From: Methanobrevibacter sp.
GTDB lineage: Archaea > Methanobacteriota > Methanobacteria > Methanobacteriales > Methanobacteriaceae
Assembly: GCA_017652345.1 (NCBI GenBank)
Contig: JAGCBE010000325.1
Coordinates: 1-12,479 of the forward strand
DNA: 12,479 bases
Direction: 5' to 3'
Part shown: in pieces, positions 239 through 10,389 of the stretch
Numbering within the stretch: the stretch's first letter is position 1
How the letters are laid out: each line of letters begins with the position of its first letter
The notes under the pieces: model-generated
What the model saw: the letters and a program-made list of their open reading frames with translations, nothing else
Told to the model about the DNA's origin: nothing
The model's database searches: none
Made by a program: the position numbers and the translations under genes

Positions 239-658
239 TTAATTAACTTTATTGACGCTATCAACAAAGGTATCTAAAACAGCATTTGTGATATCAATGC
301 CTGTATATACACCTGTTAGAATATCAATTCCAAAACCTCTATATGTAGTTCCATTATAGTAGATATGTGATAAGTTAATTTTGTAATCGCCTGTGTTAAT
401 TTCTCCGCAAGCATTTAGATTAGCAATTCCATTACTTTCTACCCAATTTTTTAGAGTGTCCCAAGAAGTAAATGCTGTTTTGTCATTATTAATAATAATG
501 AGTGAAATAGAAAGTGTTAAATCTCCTGTCTGTTTTACCATAATAACAGGATGATAATAAAGCGGTTTAGCATTTTCTAAAGTACCGCTTTCAACTAATT
601 TTTTAACTTCACTATCAGCAATTTCTTGTAATTGCTTTAAGCTAAACATTCTTCTCAT
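239..658 (-). CDS. Unknown 139-aa protein, last gene of the late operon
   Basis: I do not recognise this protein. The start at 658 has a very strong site, AGGAGG, 9 nt upstream on the minus strand; a second Met at codon 4 is less well placed. Residues 6-27 look like a charged helix. The rest alternates hydrophobic and polar residues as in a beta-rich domain, with several Tyr/Gly segments (Tyr at about 99-106) and no membrane span or signal peptide. It directly follows the major capsid gene, the position that the head fibre gene 8.5 has in phi29, so a head decoration or other minor structural role is a reasonable but purely positional guess. It is separated from the capsid gene by 102 bases that include two hairpins, so it may be expressed at a different level. 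Its stop codon nearly touches the ITR boundary. Confidence 0.85.
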   Translation of the reverse strand: MRRMFSLKQLQEIADSEVKKLVESGTLENAKPLYYHPVIMVKQTGDLTLSISLIIINNDKTAFTSWDTLKNWVESNGIANLNACGEINTGDYKINLSHIYYNGTTYRGFGIDILTGVYTGIDITNAVLDTFVDSVNKVN

Positions 659-760
659 AATTTATAACCTCCTAAAATGAGAAAAGGATTGCTTCTAGTT
701 TATCGCCAGAAGCATAGAAGCGAATTAGTATTATCTAGAATAGAGTGCTATGCGCTCTTA
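659..760 (-). other. Intergenic gap with two hairpins between the capsid gene and the last late gene
   Basis: On the minus strand, 758-742 forms AGAGCGC-ATA-GCACTCT (six pairs and one C/A mismatch around a 3-nt loop). Then 713-691 forms a GCTTCT / AGAAGC hairpin followed by a weak T-rich stretch (CCTTTTCTC). The second could be a leaky terminator that reduces read-through from the abundant capsid message, or an mRNA-stabilising structure. No convincing promoter for the following gene is visible. Confidence 0.45.
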
Positions 761-1882
761 CTAATCATCAACAAAGATTGTGAAGAAGGCATTTCTAGAA
801 ATAAAGCCTGTTAATTCCATGTGTGAGAAGAGATTTAAGAAGTCTCCTGCGCCATTGAAGTTTTCTCTAACAGCTTCATAGTCAACGTGAAGTCTCACAG
901 CTCTAGAATCCATTAAGATAGCGTAAGCCTTGCTTTCTGTAGCGCCAAAGTCTCTAATAATTTTAGCTTCTACACCTGTAGCAAGTTTTTCTAAATGGAA
1001 AGCGCCTGCCATTGTGTCAACTTCAAGAGAAGGCATAACACCTTGCTTCACGTAGAGAGATAAACCTTGCTCTGCGCCGATTGTATTACCATTGAGAGAA
1101 TAGCCTTCGCTTACGTCTTGTGCGATTTCAACAGCTTCTTTCATAGCTTTAATGAAAGCTTCGCCTGTTGTTGCGTCCTCTGGTACAGCAACCACTTTGA
1201 CATATTTAATAGGAATTAAATAGCCACCAGCAACAAGAGTAGCCCATGTATCGCCAGAAGCCGCTGTTTTTGATTTAACACAGACAGCGAAATTTGTACT
1301 TTGTTTATAATAAGTACCTTCTGCGACATTCATAGGAGTAGTAGCGTAATCTGTGTACGCTGTAGCATTTGTCATTGAGCCTTCTGCTAAATCGCATAAT
1401 CTACCTAATAATTCTCTCTTAACTTGATATTTGAAAACTGCTTTAGAATCTTCTAGTCTCTTTGACATAGTAGAGATAATATCAACAAATTGCCCTTCAT
1501 TATGGACGGCTCTTTCAATGTTGTTATTAGGAATAGAAGTAGCAATAACTTTCTTGCCTAAAGAGAAGTTATAGCATACAGGACGATAGGTAGGAGAGTA
1601 GAATTTTAATGCTCTGCTGCCGTCTGCGTCTTGATTGTAGTCAACAACGTCAACTAAATCTTGATACCATTCTTCAATAGTTTTGCCAAAGCTTAATTCT
1701 TCGCCGTTAAGCTCTTCTAACTTATCAAAGAAGGAAGTATCAATTTGTAAAATTTTGCCAATCTTATCAAGTAAGCCGACAATATTATTTCTTGTCTCTG
1801 TAAATGATTGATAAGCAACTTTATTGCTACCTACATAAGTAGCAACTGCGGCTTTTAATTCCGCTAAAGATAATTTTGCCAT
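761..1882 (-). CDS. Major capsid protein (phi29 gp8-like)
   Basis: A 373-aa soluble protein that would form the icosahedral shell. I assign it by overall resemblance to gp8-type capsid proteins of small phi29-like phages: a helical N-terminus (about 1-65), a mixed middle, and a conserved-looking C-terminal part (about 326-373) ending in alternating hydrophobic residues. It also fits by position, directly after a small coiled-coil scaffold as in the phi29 order 7-8. phi29 gp8 is longer (448 aa) and carries a C-terminal Ig-like (BIG2) domain; here the protein ends without one. The start at 1882 has AAAGGA 10 nt upstream. The gene follows the scaffold by 6 nt, so the two are co-transcribed. Codon choice for common residues is regular, fitting high expression. 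Confidence 0.88.
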   Translation of the reverse strand: MAKLSLAELKAAVATYVGSNKVAYQSFTETRNNIVGLLDKIGKILQIDTSFFDKLEELNGEELSFGKTIEEWYQDLVDVVDYNQDADGSRALKFYSPTYRPVCYNFSLGKKVIATSIPNNNIERAVHNEGQFVDIISTMSKRLEDSKAVFKYQVKRELLGRLCDLAEGSMTNATAYTDYATTPMNVAEGTYYKQSTNFAVCVKSKTAASGDTWATLVAGGYLIPIKYVKVVAVPEDATTGEAFIKAMKEAVEIAQDVSEGYSLNGNTIGAEQGLSLYVKQGVMPSLEVDTMAGAFHLEKLATGVEAKIIRDFGATESKAYAILMDSRAVRLHVDYEAVRENFNGAGDFLNLFSHMELTGFISRNAFFTIFVDD

Positions 1883-1888
1883 AAAATT

Positions 1889-2164
1889 TTAATCCTTTCT
1901 TTTTTCAATTTGCTCTTTGAAGCATTCTTCAAGAGTTTTAGGCTGTGGATTGCCCTCTTCTTTTGGAGCGCCTTTGAAGGACGTATCTTTAATCACTTCA
2001 ATATATTTCTTTCGCAAATCTTCATGCGATTTAAGGAAGTCTTGCTCTTCCTTTTCAAGATTGTCAATCTCTCCAGAGATTTTCCCAATCTTTTCCACTT
2101 CCTCTGTAGGAGTAGAATCTGTGATTAATCCTTTAAGCAGCTCTCTAACCTTGTTAAAGTCCAT
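1889..2164 (-). CDS. Probable head scaffolding protein (phi29 gp7-like)
   Basis: A 91-aa, very charged, mostly helical protein with no Cys-rich, membrane or enzyme motif. Residues 20-60 have the heptad-like spacing of a coiled coil, followed by a Gly/Pro-containing linker (about 65-75) and a short charged C-terminal helix, the usual plan of small internal scaffolds in which the C-terminus contacts the capsid shell. Its size (phi29 gp7 is 98 aa) and its place just before the major capsid gene support the call. It starts 2 nt after the holin-like gene; a GGGAG sequence sits 13 nt before the ATG, within the end of that gene. In phi29 the scaffold leaves the prohead during packaging; the same is inferred here. 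Confidence 0.8.
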   Translation of the reverse strand: MDFNKVRELLKGLITDSTPTEEVEKIGKISGEIDNLEKEEQDFLKSHEDLRKKYIEVIKDTSFKGAPKEEGNPQPKTLEECFKEQIEKRKD

Positions 2165-2166
2165 AA

Positions 2167-2460
2167 TTACTTTTTGTCTCCCTTCTTATCGTTAAGAGCT
2201 TCTTTAATTTTTTCTCCACCTTCTTGGAGAATATTTCCAAGCTCTTTAACTTCTTCTTCATCTATTTTATCATCTTCTTTCGCTTTTTTCCACCATTTAA
2301 CAAGCGGAATGAAGATAGAGCAAATAATTGTAATAAGCAAGCCTACAATCATACAGATAATAGCTGTAATATGCTCTACATTTTCAAGCTCTTGCGGAGT
2401 TAAAGCAACTCCTAAAATAGAAATAATATTTCCTAAACCGCTAAAAATTGATTTCTTCAT
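2167..2460 (-). CDS. Holin-like small membrane protein
   Basis: Start chosen at the ATG at 2460 (97 aa), not the in-frame TTG 9 nt upstream, because GAGG lies about 10 nt before the ATG and this avoids overlap with the previous gene. Residues 31-54 form a strong membrane span rich in Ile and Cys, ended by KWWKK at the inner face. Residues 4-21 form a weaker hydrophobic, possibly amphipathic segment. The tail (55-97) is highly charged and helical. One or two N-terminal spans with a charged cytoplasmic tail is typical of phage holins, which make the membrane pores that trigger lysis. It lies between the lower collar and scaffold genes, not beside an endolysin. An alternative is another membrane-associated morphogenesis protein. 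Confidence 0.7.
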   Translation of the reverse strand: MKKSIFSGLGNIISILGVALTPQELENVEHITAIICMIVGLLITIICSIFIPLVKWWKKAKEDDKIDEEEVKELGNILQEGGEKIKEALNDKKGDKK

Positions 2461-2462
2461 AA

Positions 2463-3074
2463 TTAACAATCCTCTTGAAAGAATATTCTTTCAAAGTCTC
2501 TAACCCATGTAGAGAGCAAATCTTTATAATTGTCTTGAATCTCTTTTAATCTCATCATTTTAGACATAAGAGGAGAAGAATTTTCTCCTTCTGTGCTAGT
2601 GAAGTGAGTAATATAATTATCGCCTTCATAGACTTCCTCACTATTTGGATTTTGTGGAGTATCATTGAATTTAACTTTGTTTTTGCTAGTGGCTTTAATA
2701 TCTGCCATTAAGTCCGCTTTAGCGCTGGAGTATTGAGCTAAAAGCGTTGTGTAATATTCGTAAGTCTCATTTAATTGTGAGATTAATTTATAAATCCAAT
2801 TTTTATATGCCGCAGTAATCTCTTCATTAGAAGGAGCTTCTTCATTAAAGTATTTAACAATTTTGATTATTCCATGCTCATTATATTTCCCTAATACAAG
2901 AGAGATTAAATCATTATAAATAGTGTTAGTAGAAATATCACTAGGAAGCTCTAATTCTGTAAGAGATTCTAAATCTAAAGCATTTTTAATAAATGCGTCT
3001 AAAGAAATCTTTTTGAATGGAAAATATTGATTATCAATATCGCTATATTTATAGAAGTAAATCTTTTTAAGCAT
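2463..3074 (-). CDS. Lower collar / tail tube protein (phi29 gp11-like)
   Basis: Start chosen at the ATG at 3074 (203 aa): it overlaps the portal stop codon by 8 nt, has GAGG about 10 nt upstream, and gives a natural N-terminus (MLKKIYFYKYSD). A longer frame from a TTG at 3128 would add only 18 very basic residues that are the frame-shifted image of the portal's acidic tail. The protein is mixed helical, with a Tyr-rich stretch and a long helix at about 99-135 and a final helical segment at 175-200. Identity rests mainly on position, directly after the portal as in phi29 gp10-gp11, and on length (phi29 gp11 is 293 aa, so this is shorter). It is expected to sit under the portal and connect it to the tail knob. 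Confidence 0.72.
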   Translation of the reverse strand: MLKKIYFYKYSDIDNQYFPFKKISLDAFIKNALDLESLTELELPSDISTNTIYNDLISLVLGKYNEHGIIKIVKYFNEEAPSNEEITAAYKNWIYKLISQLNETYEYYTTLLAQYSSAKADLMADIKATSKNKVKFNDTPQNPNSEEVYEGDNYITHFTSTEGENSSPLMSKMMRLKEIQDNYKDLLSTWVRDFERIFFQEDC

Positions 3075-4038
3075 TATCTTCTTCCTCACTTTCTTTCTTT
3101 TCTTCTTGAGCTTCTTGCTCTTCTTCAAATTCTTCTACTTCCTGCGTAAGTGGAAAGTCTAACACTTGAGAGACTTCCTTACAGAAGGCTTCAATAGAAT
3201 CATCAAAGCAAGCGCCACATTCCGCAATTAATTGATTGTTAGAATTGACTTCTCCTGTGATAAGTCTTTCCGCTTTTTCAACAGGATTATTATTGATTCC
3301 CAAGAATGTAGATAATTCATTTTCTAGATTTTGCTTATATTGATAGAGTTTATCAATAATGTAGGAAGTATTTGAGCCGCTGTCTAGGACATTCTTGATT
3401 GCTTGTACGTCATTAGCGTCAAGGAAGAGCTTTTTTTCTCCTCTTTCAATCTTTTCCATTAAGTTCTCAACTCTAGCTTTATCTTCTGGAGAGCAGACTA
3501 CTAATCTAGGCAATTTATGGACGAATAAATTCATTTCAATAGTCTTTTCAACGTCTACAATTCTATCAATATAATACATGACTAAAGAGCGAATAGGAGC
3601 ATGACTACTATGCGCCCAGCCGATAACACAATCTTTATTGACTATTTTTAATCCTTTAGGAATGAAAGTAGCGCCTCTTTTATTAATGTAAGAGACAACG
3701 CTAGGAGCGTCTGTAATGTCATATTTAGAAATAGCAAAAGGCACTAAACAAAGCAAGCCATTTGCATTTTCATTTTCAAGAATGAGCGTATCTTTAGAAG
3801 AGTTAGAAAGCATTTGCTTCAAAGAAGGCATTTGCTTTGTACCTTCAAGAATGAAAGCACAAATACAGCCATTTTGCCAGAAGGATTTTAATAAGAATCT
3901 TTCTTGATTCTTTGTCAACTCTGGAAAATGCCTTCTATTTAAGAATAAGGCAAAGTACTTATTTTCATAGAATCTTTTAGAGGTATAGCTTTGAATTTCT
4001 TCCTCTTGATATTTAATATCTTTATATTTGATTTTCAT
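3067..4038 (-). CDS. Portal / upper collar (connector) protein (phi29 gp10-like)
   Basis: A 323-aa protein close to phi29 gp10 (309 aa), which forms the dodecameric channel through which DNA enters and leaves. Family marks visible are the helical N-terminal region, a central segment with the HSSHAPIRS and IDRIVDVEKTIEMN stretches (long helices around 140-172), and the late signature EKAERLITGEVNSNN followed by an acidic, helical wing (from about 254). The C-terminus ends in about 26 residues made largely of Glu (from about 298), a strongly acidic tail. The start at 4038 has AGGGAG 8 nt upstream, inside the end of the knob gene. It lies between the tail knob and lower collar genes and would work with the packaging ATPase at 6561-7628 and the candidate pRNA at 9344-9452. 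Confidence 0.88.
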   Translation of the reverse strand: MKIKYKDIKYQEEEIQSYTSKRFYENKYFALFLNRRHFPELTKNQERFLLKSFWQNGCICAFILEGTKQMPSLKQMLSNSSKDTLILENENANGLLCLVPFAISKYDITDAPSVVSYINKRGATFIPKGLKIVNKDCVIGWAHSSHAPIRSLVMYYIDRIVDVEKTIEMNLFVHKLPRLVVCSPEDKARVENLMEKIERGEKKLFLDANDVQAIKNVLDSGSNTSYIIDKLYQYKQNLENELSTFLGINNNPVEKAERLITGEVNSNNQLIAECGACFDDSIEAFCKEVSQVLDFPLTQEVEEFEEEQEAQEEKKESEEEDNA

Positions 4039-4041
4039 ACA

Positions 4042-6564
4042 TTAACTCCCTATTAAATTTCTTTCCCAATTTTCATATTTTTGCTCAAAGTCCCATTTAT
4101 CTTCACTTCTACTTGTTTTATGTAAGTAAGTTATTCCTGTTTTCATACAATTAATTAATTCTGTTAAGCATTCGTCTGGAATAGAAGCTATTTTTTCAAT
4201 AGAAGCTTCACACTCTAAATAGTCAAAGTTTACTCTATTATTATGAGAAGGAATGCCCATTCTATTAGAAGTATAACCAGCATAGAAGAATAAATCCGCT
4301 AGTAAATCTATCATTATATCTGTAGGTTCATAGAGAATATATTGCAATCTATTACCGCAATATTCACTCATTAAATCTACGTCATCACTACCCACAACAG
4401 AAGAAGCTTGATTTTGTGTCTGCTCTATTTTTTGTCTTAATGAATTTTCATTTTGAATTGTAGTAGTGATAGTATTTTTGACATTTGCCGCAACAGAGAC
4501 TAAAGAAGCAATAACGCCAGCAATTTTCAAAGGTACAGAAGGCGCTAATAGTGAAGCTCCTACGCTTGCCATAGATAATCCTAATCCTACAAAATTAGAA
4601 GCGTTTTGAATATTTTTGGCTTTAACGTCATAATTAAATCCTGTGCGAATATAATTGATATAAGGCACATTATAAAGTACTACTTCATTATTTCTTGCTA
4701 TAGGCATGACATTATAGAAGTTTTGATTTGCTTTATCGCAATTATAAGAAGCGAATGTAAACAAAAATTTACTATTAATTGTACTTGTCATTGTGAAAGT
4801 AATGTCAAATTCATCAAAGCCATGTAGAAAGTAATAATCTAATTTACATTTTTCTAATTCTACTTTGAAAGAGAATGAATCATACACATAAGAAGGCGCA
4901 TAAAAATCACTATGATATAATTTTGATTCTAAATAGCGTTTACTTCTTAAATTTGTAAGAGAAGGATTTATATTATTTATTTTTAAGACAGATAAAGGAT
5001 TATTAGTCCTTTGAATAATATTGTTTTGAAGTTTTGTATTAAGATTATTTAATTTTAACGCATAGAAATTAATATTATTTGATTGAGTGAAGAAAGTATA
5101 ATCCCAATTTGTATCATCATTGACAGCAATTTTTCCGCCTTCAACTTGAAAATTATAAGGACAATAAGGAAGCTTAATTAACTTAATATTTTTTGCGTCT
5201 GTCCTGTCTAATTGAGACATAGCAAATAATTTATTACTTGCGCTTGTATTAGTCCACTCACTTTCATTATTCCACATAGAATTTAAGTAGAAATTGCTTG
5301 TCTGTCTTGTGTCTTTAACAACATACTTGAAAGGAAGATTATTTAATTGAATATAATCAATATCTAAATATGTTGCTACAGAATAATTATCACGATAATT
5401 GTATAAAATTACATTAAGCTTATTTCCGCTTGTCCTTGTGATTTCTATATAACGTCCATAATTTGCTTCTTTTCCTGCGATTGTAGTACCATTAGGAAGC
5501 GTAATAGATTGAGAAATTAATTGTACTCCTACAAGATTCTCTTCATAAATTCTTGCGTAATAGTATTTTCCAGCTATTAAAGAAGTAGCTGTAATTCTTC
5601 CGCTTGTAATAACTCCGCTATCAACATTTGTCTCTTCTTCTGGAATGAGATAGCATTCTACAGGATTAACAAGACTTTCACTAGGATTCTCTTGATTTCT
5701 ATAAAGTAAATACCAATTTTGCTTTAATAATACTTTATCTTCTATAGAATAATTAGCTTGCTTGCGTAATAAAATAGGATTAATGCCTTCGCTAACATAA
5801 TCTATTTTTCTAAAATATCTAGTACCAGAATAAGAGAATGAAATTTCGTCTAGCGAAGAAATTGACATTTCTACGTCTTGAATTGTATCTACGTCTCTTA
5901 AAATAGCAGGAAAATCGCCGTCAATACAGCGCTGGAATCCTTCTAAAATATATTCATTTGAATAAGAGTTATCTAATTCAATAACAAATTTTTGAATAAT
6001 TTCTCCAGAATAGACAATTTCTTTTAAAATCCCTCTAGCAAAAATATCACTAAAAGTAAGATAAACAATTACTTCATCATTAATAGAAGGAAGCTCATCA
6101 ACAATATTATAATCACTAGGAGCAATATTTAAGAATCTCTTTTCGTAAGTAGTAGTAATTCTATCTTTATGCTCTCTTATAATTCTTGTGTTTTCTTTAA
6201 ATGTATAATCTCTATTCTCTTGAAAGGTATTTAATACGTCCATGATAAGCTCAAAGCGGACGCAATCTTTACTTCTCCAAATTGCCTTTTTAACAAAGTA
6301 ATAATGAGTTAATTCGTCATTATTTGTAATAGAGACATATTTAAAATTTAAAGTAGATTTAGGCTGTGAATAGGATTGATTCATTTCAACATTAATGCCT
6401 ATTTCTAAATCATTCTTAACGTATTGAAAATTATTGATTGTAGTAGCTGTCTTTGTTGCTAGATAAGATTCAATATCTTCAACAATTAAAAGCTTGTTAG
6501 GAAGTAATTCCCATTTACTAGAGTTATCTCTATTAGTAGAATATAATTTTACTATTGTACTCAT
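4042..6564 (-). CDS. Tail knob / distal tail protein (phi29 gp9-like)
   Basis: An 840-aa protein with the layout of phi29 gp9 (599 aa), the hexameric distal tail tube. The N-terminal block at 88-134 (YYFVKKAIW, FELIMDVLNTF, RIIREHKDR) corresponds to a segment I know from gp9 with the pattern FEIDVLQTW...IVREH. Residues 657-696 form a long hydrophobic Gly/Ala/Ser-rich loop like the gp9 loops that plug the tube and enter the membrane. Residues 736-784 hold the conserved C-terminal block (RLQYILYEP, GYTSNRMGIP, FDYLEC). About 240 residues more than gp9 are present; a beta-rich stretch at about 305-410 is the likely extra domain and might carry receptor-binding work, since no separate appendage gene is seen. 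It starts by an ATGA overlap with the ATPase stop, so translation is coupled. Confidence 0.88.
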   Translation of the reverse strand: MSTIVKLYSTNRDNSSKWELLPNKLLIVEDIESYLATKTATTINNFQYVKNDLEIGINVEMNQSYSQPKSTLNFKYVSITNNDELTHYYFVKKAIWRSKDCVRFELIMDVLNTFQENRDYTFKENTRIIREHKDRITTTYEKRFLNIAPSDYNIVDELPSINDEVIVYLTFSDIFARGILKEIVYSGEIIQKFVIELDNSYSNEYILEGFQRCIDGDFPAILRDVDTIQDVEMSISSLDEISFSYSGTRYFRKIDYVSEGINPILLRKQANYSIEDKVLLKQNWYLLYRNQENPSESLVNPVECYLIPEEETNVDSGVITSGRITATSLIAGKYYYARIYEENLVGVQLISQSITLPNGTTIAGKEANYGRYIEITRTSGNKLNVILYNYRDNYSVATYLDIDYIQLNNLPFKYVVKDTRQTSNFYLNSMWNNESEWTNTSASNKLFAMSQLDRTDAKNIKLIKLPYCPYNFQVEGGKIAVNDDTNWDYTFFTQSNNINFYALKLNNLNTKLQNNIIQRTNNPLSVLKINNINPSLTNLRSKRYLESKLYHSDFYAPSYVYDSFSFKVELEKCKLDYYFLHGFDEFDITFTMTSTINSKFLFTFASYNCDKANQNFYNVMPIARNNEVVLYNVPYINYIRTGFNYDVKAKNIQNASNFVGLGLSMASVGASLLAPSVPLKIAGVIASLVSVAANVKNTITTTIQNENSLRQKIEQTQNQASSVVGSDDVDLMSEYCGNRLQYILYEPTDIMIDLLADLFFYAGYTSNRMGIPSHNNRVNFDYLECEASIEKIASIPDECLTELINCMKTGITYLHKTSRSEDKWDFEQKYENWERNLIGS

Positions 6565-7628
6565 AAATTAAAATATATTTCCTCAATAAGATAGTAGCAT
6601 TCAATAGAGCTAAAAGCAATTAATCTCTTTCGCATAGCCTCTTTTATTTTTTGGAATTTGTATCTTTCGTCTGGAGAAAGCATAACAACTCTATCAACTA
6701 GCTCTTCAAAATCAAAGCAAATAATGTCTCTTCTCTTTGAGACTTTGCTGCCTTCTATGAATTGAGCATAATAGAGAATATCTCCTATATCGTCCCAGAT
6801 AGACGCTCTATAAAGTCCTATATATCTATTAGCTGCCTTAAAGACATAGATTAGCTTGAATGAAGGTGGAAGCTTATCTCTTATGATAATATTTAAGTCA
6901 TTCACATTCTTACCTTCAAAAGCATATTTTGTGTATGCGTTGTCAAATTGATAAAGCGGATTCTCCTCAAGAATCTTCTTCCTCAATTCTGGAGTAATTT
7001 CGTAGCATTGAATAACATAGCTCTTCTTGTCGCTTACAATAGCGCCTCTTGTGAGCTTTGCTGTGCTTACATTGAAAAACATAAAATAAGGATTATAAAG
7101 GCTGTATGGATTTCCCATGAAGTAGCATTTAAGTCCTTCGCTCTCTCTTCTAAATGTATTATAGACTTCCATGAATTTTGTAGCTTCGTCCTTGAGGTAT
7201 TTTTCTCCAAATCTTTGATTACAAATAAATTCATCAAAAATAATGTACTTCAAATTAAGAAGCACTAAAGATTTAATGGCTGTAATATCACAGGAGAGCG
7301 CACATATACGCATAAACCTTTTATTATTAATATAAATGTCAACAAGTCCTTCTTTAAGCGTGGATTGTGCATATTCAAAGACAATTTTATCGTCTGTAAA
7401 CTTATTTATAATTTGTGCTATATCATCAATATAAGCTTTAGTTATGTGAGTGATTTTTCTTCTTATGACAAGAGTAGTATGCTCTCCCTCACAAAAAGAC
7501 TTGTATGCCTTGTCAAGCCATATCGCAGTAGATTTCCCTGCTTCACGCTCACTAATAATAAAATTAAATGGAAGATTATAGCCGTCTATTTTCCTGCAAG
7601 TAAAATGTATATTGTCTCTTTCTTTCAT
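6561..7628 (-). CDS. DNA packaging (encapsidation) ATPase (phi29 gp16-like)
   Basis: 355 aa from the ATG at 7628, close to phi29 gp16 (332 aa). It powers genome packaging through the portal. Walker A is residues 26-34, SEREAGKST, with the catalytic Lys at 32 and the usual first Gly replaced by Ser. Walker B is YIIFDE at 128-133 with D132 and E133. MGNP at 171-174 is a sensor-like motif. The C-terminal half should be the nuclease-fold domain that contacts pRNA in phi29, but I see no intact catalytic set. An in-frame GTG at 7682 would add 18 residues, yet lacks a ribosome site and would start inside the early promoter. The ATG also lacks one; it sits just 6 nt after a TATAAT box, suggesting a leaderless mRNA. 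It is the first gene of the late operon. Confidence 0.9.
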   Translation of the reverse strand: MKERDNIHFTCRKIDGYNLPFNFIISEREAGKSTAIWLDKAYKSFCEGEHTTLVIRRKITHITKAYIDDIAQIINKFTDDKIVFEYAQSTLKEGLVDIYINNKRFMRICALSCDITAIKSLVLLNLKYIIFDEFICNQRFGEKYLKDEATKFMEVYNTFRRESEGLKCYFMGNPYSLYNPYFMFFNVSTAKLTRGAIVSDKKSYVIQCYEITPELRKKILEENPLYQFDNAYTKYAFEGKNVNDLNIIIRDKLPPSFKLIYVFKAANRYIGLYRASIWDDIGDILYYAQFIEGSKVSKRRDIICFDFEELVDRVVMLSPDERYKFQKIKEAMRKRLIAFSSIECYYLIEEIYFNL

Positions 7629-7634
7629 ACCATA

Positions 7635-7662
7635 ATTATATATAATTAAAAAATTTTTACAA
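7635..7662 (-). promoter_or_regulatory. Candidate late promoter, minus strand
   Basis: Minus strand TTGTAA (7662-7657), 16-nt spacer, TATAAT (7640-7635). The -10 box is consensus and the -35 is fair. The start site would fall at about 7629-7627, that is, on the ATG of the ATPase gene, giving a leaderless message. The -35 box is only 6 nt from the -35 box of the divergent early promoter, so the two would interfere or share a regulator. Confidence 0.55.
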
Positions 7663-7668
7663 AATATA

Positions 7669-7696
7669 TTGAAAGTGCGCACTAGTGTGCTATAAT
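7669..7696 (+). promoter_or_regulatory. Early promoter, plus strand
   Basis: TTGAAA (7669-7674), 16-nt spacer, TATAAT (7691-7696). This is a near-consensus vegetative (sigma-A type) promoter, expected to be recognised by host polymerase at once after infection. The start site would be near 7703, followed by AGGAGA (7718-7723) and the first early ATG at 7731. The spacer holds a dyad (7677-7690). Confidence 0.78.
7677..7690. promoter_or_regulatory. Dyad in the early promoter spacer, candidate operator
   Basis: GCGCACTAGTGTGC: an 8-bp perfect centre (CACTAGTG, 7680-7687) extended by two further pairs across one mismatch. It fills the space between -35 and -10 exactly, an ideal position for a repressor. 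A second inverted repeat, TGTGCTAT (7686-7693) with ATAGCACA (7711-7718), frames the -10 box and the start site. The ribbon-helix-helix protein at 8813-9010 is a possible ligand. Confidence 0.5.
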
Positions 7697-7697
7697 G

Positions 7698-7726
7698 ATT
7701 ATGCTAGGAAATAGCACAGGAGACAA
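7698..7726 (-). promoter_or_regulatory. Alternative late promoter, minus strand
   Basis: Minus strand TTGTCT (7726-7721), 17-nt spacer, CATAAT (7703-7698). Five of six bases match consensus at -10. It would give a leader of about 60 nt before the ATPase ATG. It overlaps the early promoter and would face it, which could serve as a switch. Less likely than, or additional to, the site at 7635-7662. Confidence 0.35.
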
Positions 7727-7730
7727 AGAC

Positions 7731-7976
7731 ATGAAAAAAGAATACGAAAGACAACCTATCATTATTAAAATCCATTCAAATTTTATGAATGGTACAAGAT
7801 ACTTCAAGCTTACTCAATTAGACTATTGTGAGCAAAAAGTAGAAATGTGTAATATAAGCGGCGAAGTTATTAGCGATTTCCCTCTTATCTGGAAAGGCTT
7901 AACATTTGACGAATCAAAGCAAAGAATCCTTGATTTAGCTCACGAAGTTAGAGCGGAAGAAGTAGAGATTTACTAG
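7731..7976 (+). CDS. Unknown 81-aa early protein
   Basis: First gene of the early operon. The ATG at 7731 is chosen because AGGAGA (7718-7723) is 7 nt upstream; the frame is open from 7695, but that start would overlap the -10 box and precede the likely transcription start. The protein is soluble, with alternating strand-like segments (IIIKIHS, RYFKLTQLDY, KVEMCNISGEVI) followed by a C-terminal helix (about 59-77, rich in Glu and Arg). I do not recognise it. As the first early gene it could be a host takeover or regulatory protein, or a small DNA-binding protein of the kind that phi29 makes early, but nothing in the sequence settles this. Its stop codon lies inside the first arm of a strong RNA hairpin (7973-7996). 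Confidence 0.75.
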   Translation: MKKEYERQPIIIKIHSNFMNGTRYFKLTQLDYCEQKVEMCNISGEVISDFPLIWKGLTFDESKQRILDLAHEVRAEEVEIY

Positions 7977-7996
7977 GAAGGCGAAAGCCTTCCTAG
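7973..7996 (+). ncRNA. Strong mRNA hairpin with GAAA tetraloop between the first two early genes
   Basis: CTAGGAAGGC, loop GAAA, GCCTTCCTAG: a perfect 10-bp stem closed by a GNRA tetraloop, starting in the stop codon region of the upstream gene. No T-tract follows (AAGGAGACATATAGG does), so it is not a normal terminator. It may protect or punctuate the mRNA, or be an RNA-binding site. The 7-bp GGAAGGC/GCCTTCC core is the same as in the ITR terminator. Confidence 0.7.
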
Positions 7997-8029
7997 AAGG
8001 AGACATATAGGAAAGAAAGGAGACAAGCT

Positions 8030-8251
8030 ATGCAACTCTATGCAAAGATTCATGACAGAGACAGCTTCAAATATGAAAGAGTAGTCCTGTGTGAATTTGA
8101 AAGCGAAGCAGGAGACAAAGTCTTTATTGAAGAAGTGGAGCAACACAAAGAAGAATGCTTCAAAGTGGTTATTGATGAAGGCTATTGCCATACTACTTAT
8201 TACTACCCTGTTAAACGCTACACAATTACAGAATTAGAAATCTACAAATAA
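8030..8251 (+). CDS. Unknown 73-aa early protein
   Basis: The start has AAAGGAGA (8016-8023) 6-7 nt upstream, a very good site, so this is a real gene despite its size. It is acidic and probably beta-rich, with Tyr-rich C-terminal strands (TTYYYPVKRYTI) and paired Cys residues at 21 and 43. No membrane span and no known motif is seen. It shares a Glu- and Tyr-rich character with the preceding early gene, but I cannot claim relationship. Between the two genes, a second site-like sequence, AAGGAGACAT (7997-8006), has no start codon behind it. Confidence 0.72.
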   Translation: MQLYAKIHDRDSFKYERVVLCEFESEAGDKVFIEEVEQHKEECFKVVIDEGYCHTTYYYPVKRYTITELEIYK

Positions 8252-8263
8252 GGAGATTCTAAA

Positions 8264-8280
8264 AGGTTAGCGCTAATCCT
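8264..8280 (+). repeat. Small dyad between early genes (TTAGCGCTAA)
   Basis: TTAGCGCTAA (8267-8276) is a perfect 10-bp palindrome. With a 1-nt bulge the arms extend to AGG...CCT. It lies in the 59-base gap before the next gene. As RNA it makes only a weak stem; as DNA it could be an operator. Its core is shared with the 42-57 ITR palindrome. Confidence 0.4.
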
Positions 8281-8310
8281 CTAAAAGCGCACTTCTAAAG
8301 GAGAAATAGT

Positions 8311-8568
8311 ATGCCTAAATTAACAAGAGATAAATTTGAGAATTGGAGAAGAAATACTTTAGCGGCTATTGAAAGCCTTAATAAGATTCTTGGAAATGAT
8401 TTAACAGGAGAAGGATTCTACAATTTAGAATATAGAGGAAGAAATCATAAATTAGTCCTCACGCATGACGGATTTACTATCGCAAGAGGTATGTACGCTA
8501 TTGAAAGAGCTATTGAGAATCTATTTGACTACTACAATATGAAAGAGAGAAGAAAGAATGAATCTTGA
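8311..8568 (+). CDS. Unknown 85-aa early protein
   Basis: AAAGGAG (8297-8303) lies 7 nt before the ATG. The protein begins with a basic amphipathic helix (about 5-27, KFENWRRNTLAAIESLNKIL), then a short strand-rich middle (about 38-58, YNLEYRGRNHKLVLTHDGF), then a C-terminal helix (about 62-82) ending in KERRKNES. It is a compact helix-strand-helix layout with net positive ends. I do not recognise a family; small phage proteins of this type are often nucleic-acid or host-protein binders. It overlaps the next gene by 11 nt, so the two are probably translationally coupled. Confidence 0.72.
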   Translation: MPKLTRDKFENWRRNTLAAIESLNKILGNDLTGEGFYNLEYRGRNHKLVLTHDGFTIARGMYAIERAIENLFDYYNMKERRKNES

Positions 8569-8758
8569 TAACTTATTATTTGAAAAAGTTTTTATCATTA
8601 AATTTCAATCCGCTAATAGCAGCGGCATAATGGTAGTGAGGACTTCTCACTATGAAAAGAAAATAAATAAATTCAAAAGAGCTTTCAAAGATTGTAATAT
8701 TTATTATATGAGTGAATGTGTACTCACTCCAGAGATAATAAAGGAGCATAATCTATGA
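8558..8758 (+). CDS. Unknown 66-aa early protein
   Basis: It starts 11 nt before the end of the previous gene, with only a weak purine-rich site upstream, so expression likely depends on coupling. The sequence shows an N-terminal hydrophobic strand (FEKVFIIKFQS), a second strand (GIMVVRTSHY), a basic helix (about 33-45) and a last strand-helix part containing two Cys residues (46 and 54). The beta-beta-alpha-beta pattern is like that of many very small phage proteins, but no known motif is seen. Its stop overlaps the start of a 37-codon reading frame (ATGA). Confidence 0.65.
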   Translation: MNLDNLLFEKVFIIKFQSANSSGIMVVRTSHYEKKINKFKRAFKDCNIYYMSECVLTPEIIKEHNL

Positions 8759-8868
8759 AATTGAAAGAATATCTTGAATGGAAAAAGTCATTAGAAAAGA
8801 AGGAGAAGAAAAATGGCAGTACCAAAAGGAAAAGAAAGAATCACAATAACGATTCACAAGGAAAGTAA
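8755..8868 (+). CDS. Possible 37-aa basic peptide, coupled leader of the next gene
   Basis: A short frame starting in an ATGA overlap with the preceding stop. AAGGAG (8741-8746) is 8 nt before its ATG, a better site than the preceding gene has. The product is very Lys-rich and hydrophilic (MKLKEYLEWKKSLEKKEKK at the start). The last 56 nt overlap the beginning of the ribbon-helix-helix gene in another frame, and that gene's own site AAGGAG (8800-8805) lies inside this frame. Translation through here could open or compete with the regulator's start, acting as a leader. It may be made and have no function as a peptide. Confidence 0.5.
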   Translation: MKLKEYLEWKKSLEKKEKKNGSTKRKRKNHNNDSQGK

Positions 8869-9010
8869 AAAGTTAGTGGAGCAATTACTAGCGCTACATA
8901 GTGAGCCACTATCATACAGCAATTTATTTGAAATTGCGCTAATCTTCTATGCTAAAGCTTGCATGGGAGAAATTGACAAGCTAGAAAAACAAGAAAAGGA
9001 GAAAAATTAG
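8813..9010 (+). CDS. Ribbon-helix-helix transcriptional regulator, 65 aa
   Basis: Layout of a CopG/Arc-type DNA-binding protein: a short basic arm, one beta strand at about 9-15 (RITITIH), helix 1 at about 16-29 (ESKKLVEQLLALHS), a turn with Pro and Ser, and helix 2 at about 34-49 (YSNLFEIALIFYAKAC), then a charged tail. Dimers of this fold put the paired strands in the major groove of short palindromes. The start has AAGGAG (8800-8805) 7 nt upstream. Its place in the early operon ahead of the replication genes suggests control of early/late switching, the job of p4 in phi29, though p4 has a different fold. The dyads around the central promoter (7677-7718) are candidate targets; that link is inference. 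Confidence 0.7.
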   Translation: MAVPKGKERITITIHKESKKLVEQLLALHSEPLSYSNLFEIALIFYAKACMGEIDKLEKQEKEKN

Positions 9011-9012
9011 CT

Positions 9013-9333
9013 ATGCAAAAAGTCAAAATTATCGTCCGCAATTATGAAAAGAAAGACGGCGGCAAATTCACAAAATTAACAATCGGCGGCAAGTACATTA
9101 ATGACGTGCTTGCAGAAGAATCTCAACAATATCAAGTGAAATTCACAAGCAAGAGCGCTGTTAAAGAGCCAAATCAAGAAGGCATTTATGAAGTAGCCTT
9201 CAATGACGGCGAAGCATGGATTGACAGCCGTCCAGAAGTCGCAGGAAAATTCATTTATAGAATTACTGCTCAAAGAGTTAAATTTAATAAACCTCTTCCA
9301 AGACTTGAAAAAGACATTAGAGAAGTGAAATAA
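9013..9333 (+). CDS. Probable single-stranded DNA-binding protein (p5-like)
   Basis: A 106-aa, mainly beta-strand protein with regular strands (VKIIVRNYE, KFTKLTIGGKYI, YQVKFTSKS, GIYEVAF, KFIYRITAQRV), aromatic and basic residues spread along them, and a charged C-terminal tail, which suits an OB-like ssDNA-binding domain. The early operon position, two coding genes before the polymerase and one before the probable terminal protein, is like gene 5 (SSB) in phi29. It would coat the displaced strand during strand-displacement replication. No motif proves the function; another small beta-rich protein is possible. AAAGGAG (8995-9001) lies 11 nt before the start, within the end of the regulator gene. 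Confidence 0.5.
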   Translation: MQKVKIIVRNYEKKDGGKFTKLTIGGKYINDVLAEESQQYQVKFTSKSAVKEPNQEGIYEVAFNDGEAWIDSRPEVAGKFIYRITAQRVKFNKPLPRLEKDIREVK

Positions 9334-9343
9334 TTAAATTAAC

Positions 9344-9452
9344 GGACGCTATATTTAATAATAGTAGAAAGCGTAATCTAGAGAGGAAGCTAGACATTGG
9401 ATTGTCCCTCTGCGCTGTTATGTAGCGATAACACTATTAACTTATAGCGTCC
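9344..9452 (+). ncRNA. Candidate packaging RNA (pRNA) of phi29 architecture, about 109 nt
   Basis: Seen by hand pairing. Closing helix: GGACGCTATA (9344-9353) with TATAGCGTCC (9443-9452), 10 perfect pairs. It continues, after a small internal loop, as TTA (9355-9357) and ATAG (9361-9364) with CTATTAA (9434-9440), leaving a 3-nt 5' bulge (9358-9360). The junction holds hairpin 1: AGCG/CGCT (9370-9373, 9413-9416), AGAGG/CCTCT (9382-9386, 9407-9411), a 5' bulge AAGCTA (9387-9392), then GACA/TGTC around loop TTGGAT (9397-9402). Hairpin 2: GTTAT/ATAAC (9417-9421, 9428-9432) with loop GTAGCG. Bulge GCUA (9389-9392) can pair with loop UAGC (9423-9426). phi29 pRNA, which forms a ring between portal and ATPase, has the same A-helix with CCA bulge (18-20), CE bulge (45-48) and D loop (82-85); here the equivalents fall at 15-17, 46-49 and 80-83. 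Confidence 0.78.
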
Positions 9453-9459
9453 CTTTTCT
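9441..9459 (+). terminator. Possible leaky terminator at the 3' end of the candidate pRNA
   Basis: The 3' arm of the closing helix (9443-9452) is followed immediately by CTTTTCT (9453-9459). A stable helix plus a short U-rich run could end part of the transcripts here and define the RNA's 3' end, while read-through continues into the replication genes. The stem closes over 89 nt, which is long for a terminator, so processing is an alternative. Confidence 0.35.
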
Positions 9460-9478
9460 AACAAAAAGGAGACAAAAT

Positions 9479-9739
9479 ATGAAAACATTTCAACAAAATC
9501 TTGAAAGCCTAAATTCAAAGAAATTAAGCGCTTATCTTGGTTGTAATTTAAGAATTTATAAAGAAGAATTACTTTCTTTATTAGCAATTAAAGGAATTGA
9601 AGTAAAGAGAAATATGAGCTATAGCGAAATAGTTTATGTTTATAGAGATTGCGTGCTAGATATTATCTTTTCTAGAATTGAATACCCTAGAAAAGACTTT
9701 GACTTTATTAACGGCGAAAAATACTTTATAGGAGCTTAA
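9479..9739 (+). CDS. Unknown 86-aa protein between the candidate pRNA and the terminal protein gene
   Basis: The start has AAAAAGGAGA (9463-9472) 6-7 nt upstream, an excellent site. The protein is largely helical, with segments at about 3-18, 25-39 (RIYKEELLSLLAIKG) and 47-62 (YSEIVYVYRDCVLDIIF), and a short polar C-terminus. Two Cys residues are present (22 and 58). Nothing identifies a family. Position next to the terminal protein and polymerase genes suggests a replication accessory role, but that is only context. Confidence 0.7.
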   Translation: MKTFQQNLESLNSKKLSAYLGCNLRIYKEELLSLLAIKGIEVKRNMSYSEIVYVYRDCVLDIIFSRIEYPRKDFDFINGEKYFIGA

Positions 9740-9741
9740 TT

Positions 9742-10389
9742 ATGAATGTAGCACAAATGATAAAAGAGCTTGAAAAAATGGGCTTCAAAGTGGACGCAAG
9801 AAGAAGGACAGACGGCGGCTGGATTATTATGAAAATCAATGGAATGTCCTTTTCTGGAGCAAGTGGCAATCAATACGCTAGAGAAGTGTTAGGAGTACAG
9901 CTTTCTCAAGCACGAATAGAGCAAGTACATTTTAACGTCAATAAATATATTAAAGGCTCTAAAAAGCCTAAAGACAAAATTGATGAAGAAATGGAAGCAG
10001 AATTAAAAAGAGTACAGCGCTTATGGAGAAAAAACAAAGTAGGCGCTAGAATCACTAAAAGAAAACTCCGCTGGCACTTAAAAGAAGGCGGAAGAAAAGA
10101 AGCATGGGACTACCTCAAGAAAATGTCTAGATATGGACAAGGCTACGCTTATGAAGAGAATGTCCTTTATTTAGCTAAATACATAGAGGACGTGGCGCAA
10201 GGCTGTCCTGCTAATTATAAAGATAAAGTCTTACAAGTCGCGGCGGCTGTCCGCTCAAAGCTTGAGACTTTCAAAGAATCATGGATTCACGATATATATT
10301 CCTATTGGTATGAAGTAATAGGAAGCAATTATTATGAGCCTGTAATTGAAAGAGCAATTAACTCAACTTATAACACTATGAAAATGTAA
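9742..10389 (+). CDS. Probable terminal protein (genome-linked primer of replication)
   Basis: A 215-aa basic protein placed directly before the protein-primed DNA polymerase, the position of the terminal protein gene in phi29 (266 aa) and in Cp-1. It would give the hydroxyl group for the first nucleotide and stay on the 5' ends. The N-terminal part (about 1-50) has a helix then a GGWIIMKINGMSF strand pair and SGNQYAR. The middle (about 78-125) is a long, Lys/Arg-rich helical region suited to DNA binding. The C-terminal part is helical with many aromatic residues (WIHDIYSYWYEV). The priming residue cannot be fixed by eye; S208, T209, Y210 and T212 near the end are among the candidates. GGAG (9731-9734) is 7 nt before the start. 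The stop is 2 nt before the polymerase start. The call rests on context, size and charge. Confidence 0.62.
   Translation: MNVAQMIKELEKMGFKVDARRRTDGGWIIMKINGMSFSGASGNQYAREVLGVQLSQARIEQVHFNVNKYIKGSKKPKDKIDEEMEAELKRVQRLWRKNKVGARITKRKLRWHLKEGGRKEAWDYLKKMSRYGQGYAYEENVLYLAKYIEDVAQGCPANYKDKVLQVAAAVRSKLETFKESWIHDIYSYWYEVIGSNYYEPVIERAINSTYNTMKM

What the first reader, a model, noticed from the sequence alone, without database searches (positions are those of the whole stretch)
9344..9452. A phi29-type packaging RNA hidden in the early operon
The gap between the SSB-like gene and the next early gene can be paired by hand into a closing helix of 10 + 7 bp with a 3-nt 5'-side bulge, a junction, a long hairpin with a 5'-side bulge, and a short hairpin. 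The order and the numbering of elements match phi29 pRNA as I know it: bulge at 15-17 here against 18-20, CE bulge at 46-49 against 45-48, D-loop at 80-83 against 82-85, total 109 nt against about 117-120. The genome also encodes the gp16-type ATPase and gp10-type portal that pRNA serves. pRNA is well described only for close Bacillus relatives of phi29, so one in such a small, distant phage would be a clear extension.
Basis: partly seen in the sequence, partly recalled or inferred. Interest (0 to 1): 0.95.

Follow-up and report, generated by a model that had tools for sequence, protein, structure and literature searches.

The report
Packaging RNA in tiny phi29-like phage
A 109-base stretch between two early genes of a 12.5-kb phi29-like phage sequence folds like the phi29 packaging RNA, including two loops that are exact complements of each other, and is likely the RNA ring part of this phage's DNA-packaging motor, a part so far described as special to phi29 and related Bacillus phages.

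Summary
9334-9460 folds at -35.4 kcal/mol (z -3.58, 0 of 200 shuffles) into a phi29-type three-way junction at 9344-9452. The CE-bulge GCUA (9389-9392) and the D-loop UAGC (9423-9426) are exact complements, like the loops that join phi29 pRNA copies. An energy-based scan counts 21-29 such structures here, as many as for phi29 and B103 (29 each); 12 shuffled windows reach at most 3. A stricter combined anatomy occurs in 41 of 4000 shuffled windows, 4 of 4000 with the apical-loop motif. The genome has the matching ATPase, portal and capsid genes. The scan found the same architecture in 17 of 33 other phi29-like phages, many outside Bacillus and often just upstream of the ATPase; one group of six shows strong covariation. 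Against: Rfam RF00044 and two covariance models made here do not find this RNA, and no DNA of close relatives was found, so covariation in this clade is untested. Most likely a divergent pRNA: a new variant of a known kind.

The parts
9344..9452 (+). predicted packaging RNA (pRNA), 109 nt
9344..9353 (+). outer closing helix, 5' strand (pairs with 9443-9452)
   Evidence: pair probability 0.97-0.98 at its two ends
9443..9452 (+). outer closing helix, 3' strand
9354..9358 (+). 5' side of the internal loop, UUUAA, at the place of the phi29 bulge; 3' side 9440-9442
   Evidence: UUUAAU or UUCAAU also at this place in L022-L025
9359..9365 (+). inner helix, 5' strand (pairs with 9433-9439)
   Evidence: probability about 0.83
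9433..9439 (+). inner helix, 3' strand
9370..9416 (+). CE arm (long hairpin), in the phi29-like fold with an extra 5' internal bulge 9375-9381
9389..9392 (+). kissing 4-mer GCUA in the CE bulge 9387-9392
   Evidence: sequence
9397..9402 (+). apical hexaloop UUGGAU on a 4-bp stem 9393-9396/9403-9406
9417..9432 (+). D arm (short hairpin), 5-bp stem
   Evidence: probability about 0.95
9423..9426 (+). kissing 4-mer UAGC in the D-loop 9422-9427
   Evidence: sequence
9305..9334 (+). promoter-like site TTGAAA-18-AATAAT with TG before the second hexamer, ending 9 nt before 9344
   Evidence: the number of such sites in 7600-9800 is near chance (11 against 7.6, sd 3.0)
   Evidence: no family match; 145 homologues
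9479..9739 (+). downstream early gene, no family match
6561..7625 (-). gp16-type packaging ATPase
   Evidence: PF05894 53.9 bits; predicted model matches the phi28/phi29 motors
3067..4038 (-). gp10-type portal (connector)
   Evidence: PF05352 74.4 bits
761..1882 (-). phi29-type major capsid protein
   Evidence: PF25622 98.9 bits

Best explanation
The 9344-9452 stretch folds in silico as a three-way-junction RNA with exactly complementary CE-bulge and D-loop 4-mers, and is likely the pRNA of this phage's phi29-type DNA-packaging motor. Inferred working: it would be transcribed from the early strand, perhaps from its own promoter-like site, freed as a discrete RNA of about 110 nt, and joined head to tail through GCUA of one copy pairing with UAGC of the next into a ring (five copies in phi29). 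The ring would sit on the prohead with the apical UUGGAU loop against the capsid and the closing helix towards the gp16-type ATPase, holding that ATPase at the gp10-type portal while DNA is pumped in. Shown here: the predicted fold, the complementarity, the partner genes and the same architecture in other phi29-like phages. Not shown: a transcript, a ring, or any need for it in packaging.
For: Fold and stability. Exact GCUA/UAGC complementarity between the two loops that pair in phi29 pRNA (sequence). Joint anatomy in 41 of 4000 shuffled windows, 4 of 4000 with the loop motif; 21 of 2000 and 1 of 2000 with the narrower loop pattern. Topology scan 29 at 9344-9452, equal to phi29 and B103 (29 each); at most 3 in 12 shuffled windows. 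The gap 9334-9478 is 145 nt against at most 59 nt elsewhere in the early operon. Phi29-type capsid, portal and ATPase genes; the ATPase model matches the phi28 and phi29 packaging motors first, and the phi29 C-terminal domain (7cnb, E 3.4e-4). Like RNAs in other phages: just upstream of the ATPase in L011, L012, L014, L019, L020, L023-L026 and Hungatella phage CH17P1, whose kissing pair is again GCUA/UAGC; in a gap before the ATPase region of Eggerthella phage LE1-1; between early and late genes of Arthrobacter phage Anjali and Curtobacterium phage Pize. L021-L026: 23 of 39 pairs change on both sides, 0 of 500 shuffles as high. [quoted passage not shown]
Against: RF00044 gives no match at E <= 10. 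Models R1 and R2 give the place only 10.3 and 11.5 bits (E 4.5 and 1.9), rank 12 of 32 and 10 of 29 matches listed in the window, although R2 finds phi29, B103, L009 and L010. The apical loop has G where the others carry A (UGG for UGA). The CE arm has an extra 7-nt internal bulge, and the phi29-like CE arm holds only about 28% of the ensemble. The closest relative in the phages collection (L001, 38.5% ATPase identity) shows no candidate. The motif module alone occurs 0.91 times per shuffled window. The descriptor's stem limits were set with this RNA in view. No close-relative DNA, no transcript data.
Confidence: 0.85

Rival explanations
1. A cis-acting leader: the fold regulates the gene that starts at 9479 (attenuation or translation control), the closing helix plus the T-rich tail acting as a weak terminator.
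For: The 3' arm is followed by CTTTTCT and lies about 13 nt before the ribosome-binding site of the next gene (sequence).
Against: The terminator scan finds none here. It does not explain the complementary loops or the match to pRNA anatomy. In other phages the like RNA sits beside quite different genes (left genome end, before the ATPase, between early and late genes), which fits an RNA acting in trans.
Confidence: 0.07
2. A chance fold in an AT-rich non-coding gap.
For: Hand pairing alone is common: 223 of 400 shuffled windows have some match to the loose descriptor and 12 of 400 a match of 28 bp or more with a kissing 4-mer; energy alone is unremarkable for the genome; no covariance model finds it.
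Against: z -3.58 for the stretch itself; joint anatomy in 41 of 4000 shuffles, 4 of 4000 with the loop motif; topology score 21-29 against at most 3 in 12 shuffles; it lies in the largest gap of the early operon, in a genome with ATPase, portal and capsid genes of the phi29 type.
Confidence: 0.05
3. A remnant or a different small RNA: descended from or resembling a pRNA, but no longer part of the motor.
For: L001, the nearest relative in the phages collection, shows no candidate, so the lineage may be able to package without one; one base of the capsid-contact loop differs.
Against: The kissing loops are exact complements and the outer helix of 10 bp has no mismatch, as expected under selection; L001 may be incomplete (a scaffold marked UNVERIFIED).
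Confidence: 0.03

Closest known systems
phi29 pRNA (Rfam RF00044, Phage_pRNA)
   Same: Three-way junction; interrupted closing helix; long CE arm with a 5' bulge complementary over 4 nt to the D-loop; 4-bp apical hairpin with a hexaloop (UUGAGU in phi29, UUGGAU here); about 110-120 nt; same strand as the early genes; phage with capsid, portal and ATPase genes of the same families.
   Different: No RF00044 match at E <= 10 (phi29 itself 145.4 bits). Kissing letters GCUA/UAGC for AACC/GGUU. A 5 x 3 internal loop in place of the phi29 bulge; an extra 7-nt bulge in the CE arm; four unpaired junction bases before the CE arm and none between the CE and D arms, whereas the phi29 model has one before and three between. 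Lies inside the early operon, not at the genome end.
pRNA-like RNAs found here upstream of the ATPase in viral contigs and fecal scaffolds (L019-L026, L011, L012, L014) and in Hungatella phage CH17P1
   Same: Architecture and kissing loops; CH17P1 has the same kissing pair GCUA/UAGC.
   Different: Place in the genome (just before the ATPase gene); L019-L026 carry a GAAGA pentaloop and a 14-15-bp outer helix.
'packaging RNA' annotated in Actinomyces phage Av-1 (NC_009643, misc_RNA 16295-16402)
   Same: Precedent for a pRNA claim outside Bacillus phages (record annotation).
   Different: The annotated stretch does not fold into a pRNA-like shape here on either strand, and the scan lists no candidate in that genome.

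Membership tests
phi29-type pRNA | two-hairpin three-way junction closed by an interrupted long helix, about 110-120 nt | tested here: met
   predicted fold
phi29-type pRNA | CE bulge and D-loop complementary over 3-4 nt (PMC12670572, passages) | tested here: met
   GCUA 9389-9392 and UAGC 9423-9426
phi29-type pRNA | bulge in the closing helix between its outer and inner halves | tested here: inconclusive
   a 5 x 3 internal loop at that place, not a one-sided bulge
phi29-type pRNA | apical hexaloop with UGA, the capsid contact of phi29 (U54 G55 A56, PMC6542822, passages); its recurrence in other phages was seen here and is not a published criterion | tested here: inconclusive
   UUGGAU, one mismatch to KUGANN
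Rfam RF00044 | score above the gathering cut-off of 100 bits | tested here: not met
   no match at E <= 10. A database threshold, not a biological criterion; I do not file it in RF00044.
phi29-type pRNA | encoded with gp16-type ATPase and gp10-type portal | tested here: met
phi29-type pRNA | compensatory changes in relatives | not testable with these tools
   no DNA of close relatives found; met for the separate group L021-L026
phi29-type pRNA | discrete transcript, ring on the prohead, required for packaging | not testable with these tools
   needs experiments

The most novel reading that the evidence does not exclude
pRNA is an ancestral, general part of the phi29-type (PF05894) packaging motor and not a Bacillus-phage oddity: it persists from Bacillus phages to 12.5-kb phages and to phages of Actinobacteria and Clostridia, unnoticed because its sequence is free to change while the junction, the kissing loops and a capsid-touching loop stay.
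Probability: 0.55. Interest if true: 0.88.

Novelty: new variant of a known kind. Interest (0 to 1): 0.75.

Why it matters
[quoted passage not shown] A pRNA in a 12.5-kb phage, and like RNAs in phages of Arthrobacter, Curtobacterium, Eggerthella and Hungatella and in unassigned viral contigs, would make the question whether RNA-dependent packaging is a late oddity or an old trait testable by comparison. It would also give many natural kissing-loop and junction variants for motor studies and RNA nanotechnology.

Tried and rejected
Rfam: three chance-level matches elsewhere in the window, none of pRNA. Folding energy along the genome: unhelpful, as stable folds are common. BLASTN of 9300-9500 in the phages collection: short matches with weak E-values (best listed 0.6) in unrelated phages, 20 of 105 records listed. 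Search for close-clade DNA: exact 24-mer in viral contigs, none; ATPase query in viral contigs gave two distant contigs, others none; genome contigs none; SSB-like alignment none. The clade itself is large at protein level (648 ATPase homologues, best 120 listed; 145 SSB-like). Covariance models R1 (6 sequences) and R2 (8) do not reach the window; R2 also misses the candidates in L011, L012, L014, L016, L030, L032 and L033 and the pRNA of Bfsp1 (L018), published in 2025, so this shows the models' short reach as much as a difference of the window. The purely mechanical pairing descriptor was dropped as evidence by itself.

Scan tally: of 33 phages other than the window put through the topology scan (whole, or the fetched part: L008-L010, L023-L028, L035, L036), 17 have a match of 3 or more samples at a known pRNA place or in a gap by the ATPase or between gene blocks (L002, L007, L009-L012, L014, L019, L020, L023-L026, L030, L032, L037, L038) and 16 have not (L001, L008, L013, L015-L018, L027-L029, L031, L033-L036, L039). 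Of the 16, L008, L016, L018 and L033 match the motif module, and L008 and L015 are the next-best matches of R1 (E 0.29 and 0.52); in L035 and L036 I read the RNA by eye by analogy with L032; L039 has the gap and a UUGAUU hairpin but no kissing complement that I could see. L010 and L030 are weak (3 samples; L030 6 in the laxer). Matches elsewhere that I do not accept: L028 +2707 (4 samples, inside the ATPase match), L011 +8635 (4), L015 -11353 (6, laxer limits), and in the first scan, which also counted apical-loop complementarity, several more (among them L001 -1312, L002 +16741, L011 +16643 and -5625, L014 -1625, L015 -16629, L017 +10184 and -13530), which the bulge-only scan of the same genomes did not list at 4 or more.

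Full report
WHAT WAS CHECKED. The window is a compact 12.5-kb phage sequence with late genes on the minus strand and early genes on the plus strand. It encodes a phi29-type capsid protein (PF25622, 98.9 bits), a gp10-type portal (PF05352, 74.4 bits), a gp16-type ATPase (PF05894, 53.9 bits) and a family B DNA polymerase (PF03175, 89.3 bits). The stretch 9344-9452 lies in a 145-nt gap between the small early gene 9013-9333 and the gene 9479-9739; the other gaps of the early operon are at most 59 nt.

FOLD. 9334-9460 folds at -35.4 kcal/mol, z -3.58 against 200 dinucleotide shuffles, none as stable. Numbering 9344 as 1: helix 1-10/100-109, internal loop 11-15 against 97-99, helix 16-22/90-96, four junction bases 23-26, CE arm 27-73, D arm 74-89. 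The CE arm has two folds of equal energy (-34.3 kcal/mol each): the MFE, and a phi29-like one with stem 39-43/64-68, bulge AAGCUA 44-49, and hairpin GACA-UUGGAU-UGUC 50-63. The second holds about 28% of the ensemble before any loop pairing is counted. The bulge tetramer GCUA (46-49) and the D-loop tetramer UAGC (80-83) are exact complements, the relation of the AACC and GGUU loops that join phi29 pRNA copies.

CHANCE. Energy alone is not special in this genome. A loose pairing descriptor is met by chance: 12 of 400 shuffled windows hold a match of 28 bp or more with a kissing 4-mer anywhere in the CE arm. Requiring the kissing 4-mer within the 9 nt directly 5' of a 4-bp, 6-loop hairpin gives 41 of 4000 shuffled windows (both strands); adding an apical loop within one mismatch of KUGANN gives 4 of 4000. 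With the narrower KUGARW pattern the counts were 21 of 2000 and 1 of 2000. The loop patterns were taken from other phages, but the descriptor's stem lengths were set with this RNA in view, so these counts are optimistic. An energy-based scan (31 structures per 150-nt window, step 20) counted 21 and, in a second run, 29 structures with bulge kissing here; the highest count over 12 shuffled windows was 3.

CONTROLS AND RELATIVES. Bulge-only scan of 14 sequences, the window and 13 relatives: matches of 10 or more are the window (29), phi29 (29, at its known place), B103 (29 and 14, overlapping), L012 (45), L014 (19), L019 (58), L020 (14) and L011 (10); the matches of 4-9 are L011 +8635 (4) and one overlapping the L019 RNA (6). 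The places in L011, L012, L014, L019 and L020 all lie directly upstream of the ATPase match (ATPase places). L001, L013, L015, L016, L017 and L018 have none; Bfsp1 (L018) has a published pRNA, so the scan misses some. Eight viral contigs with relatives of the L020 ATPase were fetched, two of them L019 and L020 again; the RNA is upstream of the ATPase in six of the eight (L021-L026) and was not seen in L027 and L028. In all six a TATAAT box stands just before the RNA (sequence). On a plain MAFFT alignment of the six, 23 of 39 pairs change on both sides and 87.5% of cells pair; 0 of 500 shuffles reach either figure, and partners slid by 1-3 columns give at most 14 pairs and 50%. The structure used came from one of these sequences (L023), and relatedness can inflate the shuffle test, as the tool warns. 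The kissing helix itself shows no two-sided change (86.4% of cells paired); by eye it covaries (ATCA/TGAT in L021-L024, ACCA/TGGT in L025 and L026), which the MAFFT columns hide because L025 and L026 are shifted there. Further candidates: Hungatella phage CH17P1 just upstream of its ATPase, with the window's kissing pair (weak, 3 samples); Arthrobacter phage Anjali; Curtobacterium phage Pize and Eggerthella phage LE1-1; and, by the motif module, Bfsp1 and Bacillus phages PumA1 and PumA2. Tally over all scans: 17 of 33 phages other than the window (listed, with the misses and the unaccepted matches, under tried and rejected).

THE APICAL LOOP. In phi29, U54 G55 A56 of the pRNA touch the capsid E loops (PMC6542822, passages read); with the AACC bulge at 45-48 (numbering recalled, and given in the finding) these are the UGA of the loop UUGAGU. 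The hexaloop at this place is UUGAGU in phi29, B103, Chedec 11, L009, L010 and Bfsp1; GUGAAA in PumA1, PumA2, L012, CH17P1 and LE1-1; UUGAAU in Anjali and, read by eye, in Mendel and Swim; GUGAAG in Pize; UUGAUU in Mantle. L021-L026 have a GAAGA pentaloop, L011 a like GCGAAGAG stretch and L014 a 7-base loop. The window has UUGGAU. The module with an exact KUGARW loop gives 12 matches in 412,569 bases of loci (some overlap), 11 at known or candidate pRNA places; eight of those belong to the phages, or close kin of the phages, that suggested the pattern, so only three (L016, L018, L033) are new. With one mismatch allowed many scattered matches appear, and 0.91 per shuffled window; the window's only match, both strands, is the one at 9393.

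WHAT SPEAKS AGAINST. RF00044 does not match though it scores phi29 at 145.4 bits. Model R1 (L021-L026) gives 9338-9458 only 10.3 bits (rank 12 of 32 in the window), while its next-best matches in 274,860 bases are Chedec 11 (E 0.29) and the left end of KonjoTrouble (E 0.52), where Bacillus pRNAs lie. R2 (plus those two) gives the window 11.5 bits (rank 10 of 29); its only four matches in 300,685 bases are phi29, B103, L009 and L010, and it misses the candidates in L011, L012, L014, L016, L030, L032 and L033 and the published one of Bfsp1. The nearest relative in the phages collection, MT836277 (ATPase 38.5% identity), shows no candidate. DNA of the close clade (648 ATPase homologues at protein level) was not found in the collections searched, so the decisive covariation test for this very RNA is open.

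MECHANISM (inferred from phi29). Copies would join through GCUA-UAGC pairing into a ring; the CE hairpin loop would face the capsid and the closing helix the ATPase. The ATPase model (pLDDT 78.7, pTM 0.61) matches the phi28 motor (E 1.3e-13), the phi29 motor (4.9e-12), the phi29 N-terminal domain (4.3e-10) and C-terminal domain (3.4e-4); full-length TM-scores are only 0.43-0.51, so the domain arrangement is uncertain. For the asccphi28 ATPase, solved without pRNA, the positions of pRNA-contacting residues are said to be conserved (PMC8216284, passages read).

PRIOR ART. [quoted passage not shown] PMC12670572 (passages): 12 new pRNAs by Infernal from phi29, GA1 and DLc1, Bfsp1 named, paired loops in all 12. 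PMC6266182 (passages): a model from Nf and GA-1 could not reliably find the Cp-1 pRNA. Av-1 carries an annotated packaging RNA. Nine paper searches listed no report of pRNA in phages of this size or in Hungatella, Eggerthella, Arthrobacter or Curtobacterium phages; two searches showed 20 of 156 and 20 of 41 papers, titles and abstract starts only, and most subscription papers are not in that library.

VERDICT. Likely a divergent pRNA. It has the anatomy to work like phi29 pRNA; membership in RF00044 is not claimed.

Noticed in passing
L011 11174-11306 (-), L012 8434-8533 (-), L014 about 1852-1966 (-), L019 1966-2076 (-), L020 13662-13770 (+), L023-L026 about 2360-2480 (+), L030 13686-13791 (+): pRNA-like RNAs directly upstream of the packaging ATPase in phages not assigned to Bacillus, without an annotated RNA there (the Hungatella record annotates none; the other records carry no annotation or were fetched without one).
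   Followed up: partly
L032 about 4991-5090, L035 634-807, L036 1315-1506, L037 3932-4050, L038 12540-12640: pRNA-like RNAs in Arthrobacter, Curtobacterium and Eggerthella phages (L035 and L036 read by eye); in the Arthrobacter and Curtobacterium phages they lie in the gap between the early block and the genes before the capsid gene.
   Followed up: partly
L029 (Actinomyces phage Av-1) 16295-16402: The stretch annotated as 'packaging RNA' does not fold like a pRNA on either strand (-14.6 and -19.5 kcal/mol); the annotation may be misplaced.
   Followed up: partly
L001 (MT836277): The nearest relative in the phages collection reads better with TGA as Trp (ATPase, tail and portal frames become longer), suggesting a Mycoplasma-like code; no pRNA candidate was found in it.
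   Followed up: partly
window 7635-7696: Two strong divergent promoter-like sites (TTGAAA-16-TATAAT + and TTGTAA-16-TATAAT -) between the late and early gene blocks.
   Followed up: no
L018 (Cytobacillus phage Bfsp1) about 620-744 (-): A pRNA-like fold with the hexaloop UUGAGU in a phage whose pRNA was reported in 2025 (PMC12670572); its coordinates there were not compared.
   Followed up: partly
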